Below are positions 20,583-37,061 of a DNA stretch of 38,711 bases, piece after piece (the stretch's first letter is position 1; each line of letters begins with the position of its first letter). Source of the DNA: Romeriopsis navalis LEGE 11480 (lineage in GTDB: Bacteria; Cyanobacteriota; Cyanobacteriia; Leptolyngbyales; Leptolyngbyaceae). Below the pieces are notes generated by a model. The model had not been told where the DNA came from and did not search any database. It saw nothing but the letters and a program-made list of their open reading frames with translations. The stretch is taken from positions 1 to 38,711 of the forward strand of contig NZ_JADEXQ010000060.1 of NCBI RefSeq assembly GCF_015207035.1. Reading direction: 5' to 3'. The position numbers and the translations under genes were made by a program.

Positions 20583-21092
20583 TTAGTTACACGCCTGGCT
20601 GACCAGGGATTGTTCACCGGCACCGTTTGGTCGGAATGCCTGGCTCCACCAAGAACCTTGTTTCTTCACAGCCCCACCAGCTGTCTTGAGCGTGTAGTTT
20701 GTTGGACGAATCATCTGTGTTGGGCAATAGATTCGAAAATCTGCAACGAGTGTATCTCCGTCGGTGTAGCTAACAGTTGCACTGGAAATTACCAATCCGG
20801 GTTTGTCGCCGGACGCAGTGTGACTGATACTTGCCCCAGCTGGATAGCCACCACCGGAGCTAGCGGCTGGTGCTGGTGCCGGTGCTGGTGCCGGTGCTGG
20901 TGCCGGTGCCGCAGCTACCGGTGCTGCTGGCGCTGCGGCTACCGGTGCTGCTGGTGCAACTGGCTGACTTGGTGCTGCTGGTGCAACTGGCTGACTTGGG
21001 GCCGCCGGATTTGAACTGACGTTATTACCGTTGCAAGCAGCACAGGTCAGCCCGACTAAGGTGAGGGCAACTGCGAGATGAGGTCTTTGCAT
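20583..21092 (-). CDS. Pro/Ala-rich putative lipoprotein, small C-terminal domain
   Basis: The 169-aa product starts with a signal sequence ending in a cysteine pair (Cys17, Cys20 in TCAAC), probably the lipidation site. A Pro/Ala/Val repeat linker follows (about residues 29-80), then a compact domain of about 85 residues with ISHTASGDKPGLVISSA, FRIYCPTQMIRP and a terminal Cys; the two cysteines may pair. I do not recognise the domain. The architecture (lipid anchor, PA-rich linker, small C-terminal domain) matches the SH3 lipoproteins at 34-37 kb, although this terminal domain is not SH3. The longer frame from 21143 lacks a signal peptide at its start, so the ATG at 21092 is chosen. Confidence 0.65.
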   Translation of the reverse strand: MQRPHLAVALTLVGLTCAACNGNNVSSNPAAPSQPVAPAAPSQPVAPAAPVAAAPAAPVAAAPAPAPAPAPAPAPAASSGGGYPAGASISHTASGDKPGLVISSATVSYTDGDTLVADFRIYCPTQMIRPTNYTLKTAGGAVKKQGSWWSQAFRPNGAGEQSLVSQACN

Positions 21093-21390
21093 ATCAACTA
21101 GAATTCTGCCTTGATTGATGATTTTCAGGTTTATGATTCCCACTAAACTCTCTTTTTCAACGTCGGGTAATTCTGTAGATGCCGATGACCTTGATGGGTC
21201 GCATGGAAATCGGAAGAACTACAGGGTGCTCTTGAAGTTGAGGTATTTGAAAAGCATACGACTGGCTGACAAGTTTAGGCGCATTTTGGTTTTAAGTTGA
21301 TCGAATCGAAAATACATGCGCCAACGCTAGAGCGAATACTACGCATAAAATTAATGGCTTACTTGTGAAAGCGATCGTTCGCTGGTAATG
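21093..21390. other. 298-bp spacer, no gene seen
   Basis: This gap lies upstream of the leftward lipoprotein gene and downstream of the SDR gene. It should hold the lipoprotein promoter. I see no convincing coding frame, stem-loop terminator or strong repeat. Confidence 0.4.
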
Positions 21391-32864: not shown

Positions 32865-32905
32865 GCCCCTCTGGTTGTGTTTGCAGCCAGAGGGGCTGTT
32901 TGTTT
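32865..32905 (+). terminator. Rho-independent terminator after tkt
   Basis: GCCCCTCTGG (32865-32874) pairs perfectly with CCAGAGGGGC (32887-32896) across a 12-nt loop, followed by the T-rich TGTTTGTTT. It lies 26 bp after the tkt stop. Confidence 0.88.
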
Positions 32906-33055
32906 GGTGGTGTATTGACCGTGCATCCGCTGATCGTATTTTCGCGATCGACGCACTTTTTTCCGCGCTTCCGCTTAATCCCTGATCGCAACCGCGCTGA
33001 CTTCGAAGGGCAGTCTAAGGCAATACAACTGCCTGTCTGCTTGGGGAATATCGCT

Positions 33056-33952
33056 GTGAACAAACGTGCTCGAACGGCTTATCGAAACTGGACTTTCCTT
33101 TGCTTTATGCTGTTTGGATTTGTCCTAACTCTGAATGGATTTGGTGGTGGACTATTTAGTAACGAACCGCTTCCAAGCCAGCAGCCCCAATCATTGCAAG
33201 CGGCCCAACAACCCGTCGCAAAAACGATTCAGACGAATCAGGTGACAGCGGCAAAGGCCCCAGCAGTTGCATCAAAGCCGAAGCCTCAACCGCCGGTTAA
33301 GAAGCCTGCACCGAAGCCTGCACCCGCCGCAAAAACCGGCGTGGCGATCGCCGCGACACCGCAACCCGTACCAACGATCGTTCCGGCCCCAGCACCTGCG
33401 CCCGCACCTGTGCCCGCGCCCGCACCTCAAAAAGTTGCAGCAGCATATCCGGCGAGTACCAAATATGGGCATTTTGCTTATCGTGAAGCCCCGTCTGGCT
33501 CACTGAGCAAAGTTCAGGGCGTCTGGATGCATCGGGAAACCGCCCAAGCCTTTCGTCAAATGGTTGCCGATGCAGAACGTAGCGGTGCTTACATCGTCCC
33601 CGTTTCAGGTTTTCGTGGGGTGAGTTTACAAGGTGAATTATTTGAAAATCAAATTGCTCGCAAAGGTTCCATTCAGCGTGCGGCTTTAGTCAGTGCCCCG
33701 CCAGGACACAGCGAACACCACACTGGGTACGCGATCGATATTGGCGATGCGGATAATCCTGGTACCCATGTTGAAATGTCCTTTGAGCAGACACCATCGT
33801 TTCGTTGGTTGAACCAAAATGCTCCCCGCTATGGTTTTGAGTTGTCATTTCCATTAGGCAATCGCCAAGGGATTAGTTATGAGCCTTGGCATTGGCGCTA
33901 CGTTGGCTCGTCAGCATCGGCAAACGTATTTGCTGTAGCTCGCAACCTCTAG
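33056..33952 (+). CDS. LdcB/VanY-like D,D- or L,D-carboxypeptidase (peptidase M15B)
   Basis: This envelope peptidase starts with GTG at 33056 (GGGGA 9 nt before it) and has a membrane anchor or uncleaved signal at residues 12-31, then a long Pro/Ala/Lys-rich spacer (about 37-125) that could span the periplasm. The M15B zinc domain follows: SEHHTGYAID with His221 and Asp228, and EPWHWRY with Glu276 and His279. The family trims the terminal residue from peptidoglycan stem peptides. It is the wall enzyme nearest to the SH3 lipoprotein array, although transcribed toward it from the opposite side. An earlier frame start at 32900 has no signal-like N-terminus. Confidence 0.87.
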   Translation: MNKRARTAYRNWTFLCFMLFGFVLTLNGFGGGLFSNEPLPSQQPQSLQAAQQPVAKTIQTNQVTAAKAPAVASKPKPQPPVKKPAPKPAPAAKTGVAIAATPQPVPTIVPAPAPAPAPVPAPAPQKVAAAYPASTKYGHFAYREAPSGSLSKVQGVWMHRETAQAFRQMVADAERSGAYIVPVSGFRGVSLQGELFENQIARKGSIQRAALVSAPPGHSEHHTGYAIDIGDADNPGTHVEMSFEQTPSFRWLNQNAPRYGFELSFPLGNRQGISYEPWHWRYVGSSASANVFAVARNL

Positions 33953-34099: not shown

Positions 34100-34230
34100 T
34101 CCATTGGCGCCACAGGTCTAGCTGCGGGCGCATTACGACTGACATAAGATGCCGAGACTCAACCGCGTTGACCACTCAGGGCGGTGAATTGATCCTATTG
34201 ACCACGCATGTCTGTCGCATCGGGTGTCAC
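34100..34230 (-). pseudogene. Decayed fragment of a fourth SH3-domain lipoprotein gene
   Basis: On the minus strand this segment aligns without gaps to the first SH3 domain of the neighbouring lipoprotein, from VxPxAxDM through SASYVSRNAPA, with roughly 84% base identity by eye over 100 bases. In that frame the two conserved tryptophan codons of the domain are stops: TGG to TAG in GQW-Y and TGG to TGA in RGW-V. Other changes are scattered (for example QVTAQ to QFTAL). The upstream signal peptide and linker are absent; the fragment abuts the terminator of copy A. It is therefore a nonfunctional relic of the array. Any plus-strand open frame over it is a shadow. Confidence 0.82.
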
Positions 34231-34231
34231 C

Positions 34232-34271
34232 AAAAATCCTGCGCTTGTGTTGATGCAAGCGCAGGATTTTT
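34232..34271. terminator. 16-bp hairpin terminator of SH3 copy A
   Basis: AAAAATCCTGCGCTTG (34232-34247) and CAAGCGCAGGATTTTT (34256-34271) are perfect complements around an 8-nt loop, with U-tracts available in both directions. It follows copy A by 40 bp. The CTGCGC/GCGCAG core recurs after copies B and C. Confidence 0.92.
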
Positions 34272-34311
34272 GCTGTTTGCTGCGATCACTTTAGTGTGAT
34301 GAAGCCTTGCC

Positions 34312-34992
34312 TTAACGCAGGTAGCTGACGTTAACCCAGCCTTCTATCCCATCGGCAAATGAGACCTTAGCCCAACTGCCTGAACTTGTGAGAATTTGGA
34401 CCGATGTGCCATTCGGGAGTGCTCCAATTACGCCGCCGCCTGGCCCCGATCGCACGTTGAGTTTCCCATTTGCATCTCGGGTGCTGACCGTACGATACTT
34501 CGAACCACTATAGCTACCGCCACCGCCTGTAGGCGGCGCCGGAGCGGGTGCCGCAGCGACGGGCGCTGGAGCATTGCGACTGACATAGGATGCTGAGACC
34601 CAACCGCGTTGACCACTCTGGGCGGTGACTTGATACCACTGCCCACTCATGTCTTCGGCATAGGGTGCGACTGCGGAACCATGGGGCAATGAACCCACCA
34701 CTGCCGAACTGGTTGAAGCGCTAGCCCGGAGATTCAGTGGTCCGCCACTGCGAGTGGTGACGTATAAGGTGGAATGGCCGGCACTGTAGGGCCGAGTTGC
34801 GGGTGCGGCGGGCGCGGGCGCGGCAACAGGGGCAGGGGCGGCAACGGGAGCGGCGACAGCGGGAGCGGCAACGGGTGCAGCAACGGGTGCAGCAGGAACG
34901 GATGCTTGTGGTGCCGGATTATTGGTTTGTCCGGAGCAGCTCACCGCGAGTGTGCTGACTGCAGCCGTGATCAAAAGCAGGGAATATTTCAT
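34312..34992 (-). CDS. SH3-domain lipoprotein, copy A
   Basis: The 226-aa product has a signal peptide with candidate lipidation Cys19 (LAVSC), a Pro/Ala/Val repeat linker (about 27-66), a first bacterial SH3 (SH3_3-like) domain (about 74-140, with GGPLNLRASAS and GQRGWVSASYV), a second PA/Gly linker, and a second SH3 domain (about 166-226, with GKLNVRSGPGGGVIGALPNG and EGWVNVSYLR). Such domains often bind peptidoglycan or peptides, so an envelope-attached binding protein is likely (inference). Copies A and B differ by one residue through position 140, while the second SH3 domains differ strongly. The gene ends before a strong hairpin terminator, and a dyad lies upstream. Confidence 0.88.
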   Translation of the reverse strand: MKYSLLLITAAVSTLAVSCSGQTNNPAPQASVPAAPVAAPVAAPAVAAPVAAPAPVAAPAPAAPATRPYSAGHSTLYVTTRSGGPLNLRASASTSSAVVGSLPHGSAVAPYAEDMSGQWYQVTAQSGQRGWVSASYVSRNAPAPVAAAPAPAPPTGGGGSYSGSKYRTVSTRDANGKLNVRSGPGGGVIGALPNGTSVQILTSSGSWAKVSFADGIEGWVNVSYLR

Positions 34993-35019
34993 TGAATCAA
35001 AATTTTTGAAAGAGAGCAG

Positions 35020-35059
35020 ACTGACAATTTCGACAACATGGAGTGTGGGAATTGTCAGT
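35020..35059. promoter_or_regulatory. Dyad ACTGACAATT-N20-AATTGTCAGT before SH3 copy A
   Basis: The arms at 35020-35029 and 35050-35059 are perfect reverse complements; the centre is about 48 bp before the copy A start codon. It may be a DNA operator (arms three helical turns apart) or, if transcription begins farther upstream, a stem-loop in the leader RNA. A partial third copy, GAATTGTC, lies at 35067-35074. Confidence 0.45.
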
Positions 35060-35267
35060 GATCGGTGAATTGTCTTACGACCACTATGACGGCTGGTAAA
35101 GTAATTGGCGTCAGTGCTTCCTAGAGGCAGTTTGATGAAGTTTTTGGCGATGAGAACGGCGCAATCCGTATAATCCTTGGAAGATTTCAGCGATATAGCG
35201 TAGTTGGGTAGGTTCAGTGAGATCGCTGACGACTAATTTTGGTGGTGATAATTTGAGCGATGAAAAG

Positions 35268-35295
35268 CTGCGCCTGGATCAAAGCCCAAGCGCAG
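35268..35295 (-). terminator. Hairpin terminator of SH3 copy B
   Basis: CTGCGC (35268-35273) pairs with GCGCAG (35290-35295), with partial extra pairing (CTGG/CCCA) in the loop, and on the leftward strand is followed by CTTTT. It sits 46 bp after the copy B stop and shares its core with the copy A and C terminators. Confidence 0.65.
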
Positions 35296-35341
35296 TATCA
35301 GATGTTTTTTTGAATGAATGTGGTTTGAGTTTGGGGGCTGC

Positions 35342-36004
35342 CTAGCGGAGATAGCGGCCAGCGACATAACCCGAGCCTGAGCCCGAGGATATATAGACCC
35401 ATGTGCCATTGCCACCGATTACTTCAACAGTTTGCCCTTTAGTCAAAGAGCCAATGACTGCTGCCGCTGAACTGGGATCGCTGCGGATATTTAATGTCCC
35501 ACTACTGATGCTGACAGTGCGATATTTCCCGCCACCGCCTGTAGGCGCCGCCGGAGCGGGTGCCGCAGCGATGGGCGCTGGTGCATTGCGACTGACATAG
35601 GATGCTGAGACCCAACCGCGTTGACCACTCTGGGCGGTGACTTGATACCACTGCCCACTCATGTCTTCGGCATAGGGTGCGACTGCGGAACCATGGGACA
35701 ATGAACCAACCACTGCCGAACTGGTTGAAGCGCTAGCCCGGAGATTCAGTGGTCCGCCACTGCGAGTGGTGACGTATAAAGTGGAATGACCAGCACTGTA
35801 GGGCCGAGTTGCGGGTGCGGCGGGCGCGGGCGCGGCAACAGGGGCAGGGGCGGCAACGGGAGCGGCGACAGCGGGAGCGGCAACGGGTGCAGCAACGGGT
35901 GCAGCAGGAACGGATGCTTGTGGTGCCGGATTATTAGTTTGTCCAGAGCAGCTCACCGCGAGTGTGCTAACTGCAGCCGTGATCAAAAGCAGGGAATATT
36001 TCAT
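35342..36004 (-). CDS. SH3-domain lipoprotein, copy B
   Basis: The 220-aa product repeats the copy A layout: lipoprotein signal with Cys19, Pro/Ala/Val linker, first SH3 domain and second SH3 domain. Up to about residue 140 it differs from A at one residue (Pro103 to Ser, in the SLSHGSAV segment), but the second SH3 domain is quite different (SISSGTLNIRSDPSSAAAV and GSGYVAGRYLR) and the linker between is shorter. The near-identity of one half and divergence of the other is a recombination-like signature. The ATG is in the context shared by all three copies (AATATTTCATTGAATCAA on the plus strand). Likely an envelope lipoprotein; ligand unknown. Confidence 0.88.
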   Translation of the reverse strand: MKYSLLLITAAVSTLAVSCSGQTNNPAPQASVPAAPVAAPVAAPAVAAPVAAPAPVAAPAPAAPATRPYSAGHSTLYVTTRSGGPLNLRASASTSSAVVGSLSHGSAVAPYAEDMSGQWYQVTAQSGQRGWVSASYVSRNAPAPIAAAPAPAAPTGGGGKYRTVSISSGTLNIRSDPSSAAAVIGSLTKGQTVEVIGGNGTWVYISSGSGSGYVAGRYLR

Positions 36005-36332
36005 TGAATCAAGTTCCTGAGAGAGCGCGAAATTACGGTTGTGTTAAATCGCAATACGTGGCTGGATTGTCTTTTCTTACTATGGCTTGCCAACATCGAA
36101 TTGACGTCAGTAATATCCAGCGACAGTTGGATAGATTTTGTTTGGATGAGGATATTAAGCTATCCGTGCAATATCCGTCTGTTTTATCCAGATGACGGCA
36201 TCGGAGCGGTACTAGCTTGATATGACTCAGTTTTCGCAACTATCTTGGGAACGAAACAACTGCGCCTAGTTTTGAGCCAGGCGCAGTCTCAGACGTCTCT
36301 ATCCTTCGTAATGTGGATGTTCGTTGAACGAA
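36005..36332. promoter_or_regulatory. Spacer between SH3 copies B and C
   Basis: The 328-bp gap holds the leader of copy B and the terminator of copy C (listed separately). Its leader is not alignable with A or C beyond the first 25 or so bases, and I find no strong dyad at the equivalent place. No coding frame is supported. Confidence 0.4.
36260..36286 (-). terminator. Hairpin terminator of SH3 copy C
   Basis: CTGCGCCT (36260-36267) pairs with AGGCGCAG (36279-36286) across 11 nt, followed leftward by a modest T-rich stretch (GTTGTTTCGTT). It is the third member of the CTGCGC hairpin family in the array. Confidence 0.7.
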
Positions 36333-37061
36333 TTAGCGGATATAACGGCTTGCAACATACCCTTCGCCATAGCCTGTTGCGACTTTCGCCCATCCTGCAT
36401 GTTCGGAAAGGACTTGTACCGCTTCGCCGTTGGCGAGGGAGCCGACCACTGCGGCCTTGGTGCTAGGACCAGTGCGGATATTCAATGTACCGCTGCTGAT
36501 ACTAACGTTTCGGTACTTTGAACCACTATAGCTACCGGAAGCATGAGCGTGGGCCGCGCGACTGGCGGCGGCATTTGCGGCGCTACTTTCACCGAGTGAA
36601 GCCGGTGCTGGGGCGGCGGCGACAGGAGCCGGTGCATTGCGACTGACATAGGATGCTGAGACCCAACCGCGTTGACCACTCTGGGCGGTGACTTGATACC
36701 ACTGACCATTCATGTCTTCGGCATAGGGTGCGACTGCGGAACCATGGGGCAAGGAACCAACCACTGCCGAACTGGTTGAGGCGCCGGCGCGCAGGTTCAG
36801 TGGGCCACCACTACGAGTTGTGACATATAAAGTTTTGTGGCCAGCGCTGTAGGGCCGAGTTGCGGGTGCGGCGGGTGCGGGCGCGGCAGCGGGTGCTGGT
36901 GCGGCGGCGGGTGCGGCGGCGACTGCGGGTGCCGGTGCGGCGGGATTTGCAGCCGGTGCTACGGGTGCGGTAGCCTGGGGTGCACCATTGTTCGCTTGGC
37001 CGGAGCAGCTAACGGCAAGTGCGCTGACTGCCGCTGTGATCAAAAGCAGGGAATATTTCAT
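36333..37061 (-). CDS. SH3-domain lipoprotein, copy C
   Basis: The 242-aa product starts at the ATG at 37061, giving the MKYSLLLITAAVS signal shared with A and B; an upstream in-frame extension from 37091 has no signal character. It has Cys19, a linker that differs from A/B by indels, a first SH3 domain close to A/B, an expanded second linker with a His/Ala-rich SRAAHAHASGS stretch, and a second SH3 domain closer to B (SISSGTLNIRTGPSTKAAV, EGYVASRYIR). It is first in the leftward order and may be the least converted member. Likely an envelope lipoprotein; ligand unknown. Confidence 0.88.
   Translation of the reverse strand: MKYSLLLITAAVSALAVSCSGQANNGAPQATAPVAPAANPAAPAPAVAAAPAAAPAPAAAPAPAAPATRPYSAGHKTLYVTTRSGGPLNLRAGASTSSAVVGSLPHGSAVAPYAEDMNGQWYQVTAQSGQRGWVSASYVSRNAPAPVAAAPAPASLGESSAANAAASRAAHAHASGSYSGSKYRNVSISSGTLNIRTGPSTKAAVVGSLANGEAVQVLSEHAGWAKVATGYGEGYVASRYIR

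What the first reader, a model, noticed from the sequence alone, without database searches (positions are those of the whole stretch)
34312..37061. SH3 lipoprotein trio: constant N-terminal half, variable C-terminal SH3 domain
Seen: copies A and B are nearly identical from the signal peptide through the first SH3 domain (one residue change in about 140), then switch abruptly to clearly different second SH3 domains and linkers. Copy C has a second SH3 domain closer to B but a first half farther from both. Known: bacterial SH3 domains often bind wall peptides. Inference: gene conversion homogenises the anchor half while the terminal domain diversifies or is exchanged, giving a small set of surface binders. 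This constant-plus-variable layout in a tandem array is the best candidate for an undescribed system here.
Basis: partly seen in the sequence, partly recalled or inferred. Interest (0 to 1): 0.7.

Follow-up and report, generated by a model that had tools for sequence, protein, structure and literature searches.

The report
Tandem double-SH3 lipoprotein genes, half homogenised
Three neighbouring genes encode envelope proteins whose membrane-anchor half is kept nearly identical by gene conversion while their end domain differs; a related pattern, with halves swapped between copies, occurs in a distant relative, and such genes often sit beside a cell-wall trimming enzyme.

Summary
Copies A and B are 97.8% identical over 149 aligned codons (dS 0.067), then 41% identical in protein, with saturated silent sites, in the second SH3 domain. 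The intergenic DNA upstream is not alike beyond about 20 bases, so this is a conversion tract, not mere conservation. C shares only a short tract. A decayed fourth SH3-1 fragment lies downstream of A.

No other genome of the genus was held. In another family (genus code g52) homologous genes also occur in tandem. There the SH3-1 and SH3-2 trees conflict between species: halves have been re-paired. One terminal-domain type is 92% identical between two species, so it looks specialised and stable, not hypervariable. One g52 tandem pair (G107) shows no constant half.

The lipoprotein genes sit beside VanY carboxypeptidase genes in three families. In a tree of 19 VanYs, the six with an SH3 gene within 1.4 kb (plus one at a contig end) form one clade, the 12 others another.

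Best reading: lipid-anchored double-SH3 adaptors for a peptidoglycan carboxypeptidase, anchor and first domain homogenised, terminal domain specialised. The recombination and the linkage are shown; the adaptor role is inferred. A new variant of a known kind, of moderate interest.

The parts
34312..34992 (-). copy A, double-SH3 lipoprotein gene (226 aa); SH3-1 at 34579-34770, SH3-2 at 34315-34500
35342..36004 (-). copy B, double-SH3 lipoprotein gene (220 aa); SH3-1 at 35591-35782, SH3-2 at 35345-35527
36333..37061 (-). copy C, double-SH3 lipoprotein gene (242 aa); SH3-1 at 36642-36833, SH3-2 at 36336-36518
34516..34992 (-). A half of the A/B conversion tract (start codon to about codon 159)
   Evidence: 97.8% identical to B over 149 aligned codons, dS 0.067; flanks not alike beyond about 20 bases
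35528..36004 (-). B half of the A/B conversion tract (start codon to the last codon before SH3-2)
34106..34226 (-). decayed relic of a fourth SH3-1/linker segment, with stops
   Evidence: 78-79% DNA identity over 121 nt to all three copies (blastn); translated match 61% aa with one TGA and one TAG
34228..34275 (.). strong inverted repeat after copy A, terminator-like
35268..35295 (-). terminator-like hairpin after copy B
   Evidence: 5 terminator-like sites found in the region, 3.2 expected in shuffles
36258..36288 (-). terminator-like hairpin after copy C
32900..33952 (+). VanY-family D,D-carboxypeptidase, convergent neighbour (ORF from TTG; true start probably later)
   Evidence: Pfam VanY 5.5e-43; in the SH3-linked VanY clade

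Best explanation
The array is a tandem family of (probably) lipid-anchored proteins: signal/lipobox, a long Pro/Ala tether, SH3-1, a linker, SH3-2. SHOWN: recombination between copies (a conversion tract in the window; re-paired halves in genus g52, by conversion or unequal crossing-over) keeps or makes the anchor, tether and SH3-1 alike or shuffles them, while SH3-2 domains keep separate lineages under purifying selection. SHOWN: such genes are linked to one clade of VanY D,D-carboxypeptidases in three families. INFERRED: the common half places every copy in the same spot and docks to a shared target (wall peptide or the VanY enzyme), and the different SH3-2 domains recognise different wall peptides or partners, so the copies act as alternative adaptors that position or tune peptidoglycan trimming.
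For: Conversion: A/B dS 0.067 in the constant half against saturated SH3-2; upstream regions unalike beyond about 20 bases before ATG; 1 of 72 nt differs between A and C over A codons 118-141 although the 43 codons before differ at 16 of 129 nt. Second case: in G128 an unguided repeat search finds the 5' flank/signal and SH3-1/linker as repeats of the tandem pair, not SH3-2. Re-pairing: SH3-1 rejects G117+G128a (p-AU 0.009 protein, 0.014 DNA) and G107b+G128b (0.012, 0.004); SH3-2 rejects G117+G128b (0.0005, 3e-5), G107b+G128a (8e-6, 2e-6) and A+B (0.037, 0.015). Constraint: G117/G128a SH3-2 57/62 aa, dN 0.037, dS 0.55. Linkage: 6 of 17 PF02557 matches in 10 genomes have a PF08239 match 0.4-1.4 kb away; in a tree of 19 VanYs these six and the one at a contig end are one side of a 100/100 branch, the 12 others the other side. 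SH3b domains shape substrate choice of wall peptidases in YkfC/AvPCP (PMC2954226, passages read).
Against: No binding, localisation or expression data. The G107 tandem pair shows no constant half: SH3-1 35/67 and SH3-2 34/64 aa, and the repeat search finds only a 45-nt repeat there. Two double-SH3 lipoprotein loci (G128:C92, G023:C16) carry no VanY. At G000:C86 and G023:C22 the SH3 gene beside VanY is not this lipoprotein. The family is rare: six of 388 class genomes show full-length matches (which scored only 6 candidates a genome where listed). SH3-1 alone cannot separate A+B from B+C (p-AU 0.42-0.48), so the A+B grouping rests on the whole N-half. The G117 signal region is nearer copy G128a (8 of 9 informative sites), so the mosaic is not one clean crossover. 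AU groups were named after the identity table was seen.
Confidence: 0.55

Rival explanations
1. Ordinary partial concerted evolution without functional meaning: conversion homogenises whatever aligns well, and SH3-2 has simply drifted beyond the identity that recombination needs.
For: Divergence of SH3-2 (DNA mostly 40-60% in 30-column blocks) would itself stop conversion. dN/dS cannot be estimated for the saturated window pairs. The G107 pair has no constant half.
Against: pN is well below pS and one SH3-2 type is 92% identical between species; tandem copies with distinct SH3-2 occur in a second family.
Confidence: 0.25
2. In the window lineage the terminal domain was replaced by an SH3 domain of another stock, after which the copies diverged.
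For: In two domain trees the window SH3-2s fall outside the SH3-2 clade of the other lineages (a third, agrees but held five misread rows).
Against: Holding all SH3-2s together is not rejected (p-AU 0.166), nor is A+B+C together (0.10); only 64 columns, long branches.
Confidence: 0.25
3. A surface-variation or polymorphic-tip system (rhs-like C-terminal displacement, vls-like cassettes).
For: Constant N-half with different C-terminal domains; a relic copy downstream.
Against: No dissociated tips or silent cassettes found in the region: the relic is a piece of the constant SH3-1, each of three copies is a complete ORF, and a terminal type is stable between species.
Confidence: 0.05
4. Strong purifying selection on the N-half alone, no conversion.
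For: SH3-1 is also protein-conserved between some g52 copies.
Against: Silent sites are nearly as alike as the protein in A/B, while A/C over the same codons has dS 0.65.
Confidence: 0.02
5. Assembly chimera between repeats.
For: 251-contig draft.
Against: Longest exact A/B repeat 115 nt, differences spread along the tract; a like pattern in another genome.
Confidence: 0.03

Closest known systems
Bacterial SH3 domain proteins (Pfam SH3_3, PF08239)
   Same: All three proteins match SH3_3 above cut-off in two stretches; the model of A has two SH3-like all-beta regions (pLDDT about 79-87 and 64-81) and Foldseek matches to SH3-bearing wall enzymes such as 4krt and 3npf, and to the single domain 2krs at 1.7 A.
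   Different: No catalytic domain found; two SH3 on a lipid tether, encoded in tandem.
TIGR04211 SH3-and-anchor family
   Same: SH3 region matches.
   Different: Only C exceeds the cut-off (71.3 vs 65 bits; A 63.1, B 49.8) and the best stretches cover profile positions 9-86 of 198 at most; the C-terminal anchor part is not matched.
SH3b-NlpC/P60 peptidases (YkfC, AvPCP)
   Same: SH3b domains working with a peptidoglycan peptidase (PMC2954226, passages).
   Different: Here SH3 and peptidase are separate genes and the peptidase is VanY, not NlpC/P60.
rhs C-terminal displacement
   Same: Core and C-terminus evolutionarily decoupled (PMC2935791, outline and abstract).
   Different: No displaced-tip array; tandem paralogues exchange halves; tips are SH3 domains.

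Membership tests
SH3_3 domain (PF08239) | profile match above gathering score, two stretches | tested here: met
   98, 95.2 and 109.2 bits against cut-off 27; two stretches in each of three proteins
TIGR04211 SH3_and_anchor | score above cut-off with the C-terminal anchor region | tested here: not met
   1 of 3 above cut-off, match limited to the SH3 part
Bacterial lipoprotein | signal peptide with lipobox cysteine | tested here: inconclusive
   LAVSC at residues 15-19 in A and B read from sequence and compared with a recalled PROSITE pattern; no predictor, no labelling
VanY D,D-carboxypeptidase (PF02557), the neighbour | profile match above gathering score | tested here: met
   146.3 bits against 25
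Tandem paralogues under partial gene conversion | silent-site identity confined to one tract, both flanks divergent | tested here: met
   for A/B; not met by the G107 pair
rhs-like C-terminal displacement | dissociated C-terminal tips downstream | tested here: not met
   the only fragment found between A and VanY is SH3-1, the constant part
vls-like antigenic variation | one expressed locus plus silent cassettes, variation within a clone | not testable with these tools
   three complete ORFs; no population data

The most novel reading that the evidence does not exclude
A modular adaptor set for a VanY carboxypeptidase clade: lineages keep one lipid-anchored SH3-1 platform and re-pair it with a few stable or newly recruited SH3-2 readers, so that one trimming enzyme is directed to different wall structures.
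Probability: 0.25. Interest if true: 0.55.

Novelty: new variant of a known kind. Interest (0 to 1): 0.4.

Why it matters
It gives a compact case in which recombination conserves one half of an envelope protein and lets the other specialise, with re-paired halves in a second family, and it suggests SH3 partners for a VanY clade whose role in these organisms is not known to me. A test is direct: do the SH3-2 domains bind different wall peptides, and do they act on the neighbouring VanY?

Tried and rejected
Synteny with the M48 peptidase neighbour: matches in 21 of 42 family genomes (own included) at E<=1e-40, without tracking the SH3 genes, so not followed. Genome-contig scan with A returned one locus, a weak match over residues 169-221 in a Holosporaceae record. 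Plasmid collection, tblastn with C: no match at 1e-10. Promoter scan: 4 sites against 2.3 expected, not informative. First widened domain tree had five minus-strand loci read in the wrong orientation; redone. The idea that window SH3-2s are foreign is suggestive but not significant. A clade of lipoprotein-linked VanYs without the kinase-linked ones: not in the 12-row tree, not rejected (p-AU 0.129). Seven paper searches (terms on SH3, VanY, cyanobacteria, gene conversion, paralogues) listed nothing that by title or abstract start describes such an array; only open-licence papers are held and I read passages of one and the outline of another. The organism was not identified; I take it for a cyanobacterium from gene content, untested (the NtcA_cyano match of a neighbour in G023 was far below cut-off).

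Full report
WHAT IS THERE. The window lies on contig 60 of a 6.47-Mb draft genome. Three genes on the minus strand, in the order C, B, A, encode proteins of 242, 220 and 226 aa. All have a signal peptide ending in a lipobox-like cysteine (read by eye), a Pro/Ala tether, an SH3_3 domain, a second linker and a second SH3_3 domain. Terminator-like hairpins follow each gene (5 sites in the region against 3.2 by chance), so they may be separate transcription units.

CONSTANT AND VARIABLE HALVES. A and B differ at 10 nt in 149 aligned codons (8 synonymous, 2 not; dS 0.067). In SH3-2 the same pair has pS about 0.8 and 24/59 identical residues. C against A or B has dS about 0.65 in the N-half, but a sub-tract at the end of SH3-1 is nearly identical (1 of 72 nt against A, versus 16 of 129 in the stretch before). 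The permutation test supports only the A-B tract (0 of 10,000; A-C 4153, B-C 500). Upstream regions share about 20 bases before ATG and little beyond (no statistic computed). Identity bounded on both sides is the mark of conversion; a single unequal crossover would have carried one flank with it. Seven of the ten A/B differences are C in A and T in B, unexplained.

A RELIC. 34106-34226 is a decayed copy of the end of SH3-1 and the linker (78-79% DNA identity to all three; two stops). It lies just after the A terminator. The array has probably been larger, and what is left is constant half, not a spare terminal domain.

RELATIVES. No other genome of the genus was held. Of 42 family genomes (own included), 11 have a match to C at E<=1e-8; apart from the own genome only G023's covers the protein, as one gene in another context. 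A looser match to A in G006 (31% over residues 11-226) is a lipoprotein-like gene whose two SH3 domains are nearly identical to each other. Among 388 class genomes, six show full-length matches: G000, G023, G107, G117, G128 and G233 (the profile was built from these). Genus g52: G128 has two tandem copies (a, b) and one elsewhere (c), G107 at least two in tandem with the second cut by the contig end, G117 one, and a fourth genome, G084, none at E<=1e-10 (these drafts are 62-87% complete). Lycopene cyclase on one side and VanY on the other flank the genes in G128 and G117; G107 has the cyclase beside its array and its VanY at the end of another short contig.

RE-PAIRED HALVES. G117's SH3-2 matches G128a (62/67 aa by region; 57/62 by domain), but its SH3-1 matches G128b best (59/66 aa against 54/66), as does its upstream DNA (81% over 108 nt against 71% over 140). 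G107b leans the other way: SH3-1 like G128a (61/66, against 50/66 to G128b), SH3-2 closer to G128b (40/65, against 36/64 to G128a); the latter clade has modest support (68/48 protein, 77/82 DNA). AU tests: of 28 clade questions (7 clades, 2 domains, protein and DNA), 14 were already in the best tree, 14 were tested, 10 gave p<0.05; the four not rejected were G107b+G128a in SH3-1 (0.118, 0.235), B+C in SH3-1 protein (0.479) and A+B in SH3-1 DNA (0.425). The groups were chosen after seeing the identities. The signal region of G117 favours G128a (8 of 9 sites) and its SH3-1 sites are mixed at DNA level (15 for G128a, 22 for G128b), so several events are likely. In G128 an unguided search finds the 5' flank/signal and SH3-1/linker as repeats of the tandem pair, not SH3-2; in G107 it finds only a 45-nt repeat, and that pair has no constant half (SH3-1 35/67, SH3-2 34/64 aa).

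STABLE, NOT HYPERVARIABLE. The type-1 SH3-2 is 92% identical between G117 and G128. Genes of the same locus range from 96% (ABC transporter ATPase-like) through 88% (lycopene cyclase) to 83% for the VanY catalytic part. Other matched pairs are less alike (G107b/G128b 40/62 by domain). This argues for a specialised domain kept for its function rather than for fast variation.

THE VANY LINK. In 10 genomes (six chosen because they hold the family, G008 for a weak match, three others from the window's family), 17 PF02557 matches were found. Six have a PF08239 match 0.4-1.4 kb away, domain to domain: G000:C60 (the window), G000:C86, G023:C22, G128:C176, G117:C261, G233:C458. One, G107:C193, is at a contig end and cannot be judged; ten have none within 3 kb at E<=1e-5. 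A tree of 19 VanYs (16 of those 17, plus G084, G033 and G097) puts the six and G107:C193 on one side of a 100/100 branch and the 12 others on the other (the first, 12-row tree agreed). At C86 the SH3 gene is a protein kinase with two C-terminal SH3 domains (Pfam), and at C22 a short ORF at a contig start with a similar SH3 domain. So this VanY clade, rather than the lipoprotein alone, keeps SH3 company; and two lipoprotein loci (G128:C92, G023:C16) have no VanY.

MECHANISM. Known: SH3b domains help set substrate choice in YkfC and the cyanobacterial AvPCP (PMC2954226, passages). Inference: here the SH3 modules are separate, membrane-tethered proteins. A shared anchor and SH3-1 would serve one docking site; different SH3-2 domains would read different wall structures or partners; VanY would trim stem peptides nearby. 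None of this binding is shown. The model of A (mean pLDDT 65, pTM 0.38; SH3-1 about 79-87, SH3-2 about 64-81, tether under 50) fits two SH3 folds on a flexible tether. Whole-model fold matches have low TM-scores, as expected for flexibly joined domains; they are led by SH3-bearing wall enzymes, and the single domain 2krs fits at 1.7 A over 64 columns.

VERDICT. The conversion reading is supported, domain re-pairing is supported in a second family, rapid diversification is not. It is a new variant of a known kind of evolution in a plausible but untested envelope role.

Noticed in passing
window 34106-34226: Decayed fourth SH3-1/linker fragment just after the copy A terminator.
   Followed up: yes
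L035 3102-3689 and 6103-6753 (own genome contig 3): Two lipoprotein-like genes share the signal region and RLSN/RLAN repeats, but only one has an SH3 domain; similar RLAN or RLAS motifs occur in the linkers of G023 and G128c.
   Followed up: partly
L037 2035-3954 and 4027-4989 (own genome contig 86): Protein kinase with two near-identical C-terminal SH3 domains beside a VanY; a similar SH3 and VanY pair in G023 contig 22.
   Followed up: partly
L014 1468-2151 (G006): Lipoprotein-like gene whose two SH3 domains are nearly identical to each other: homogenisation within one gene.
   Followed up: no
window 34516-34992 vs 35528-36004: Seven of ten A/B differences in the converted half are C in A and T in B.
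   Followed up: no
window 20583-21143: Pro/Ala-rich lipoprotein-like ORF without a Pfam match at E<=0.01.
   Followed up: no
L058 2456-3520 and L061 2685-3833: Conserved g52 gene near the array with a faint SH3-like C-terminus.
   Followed up: no
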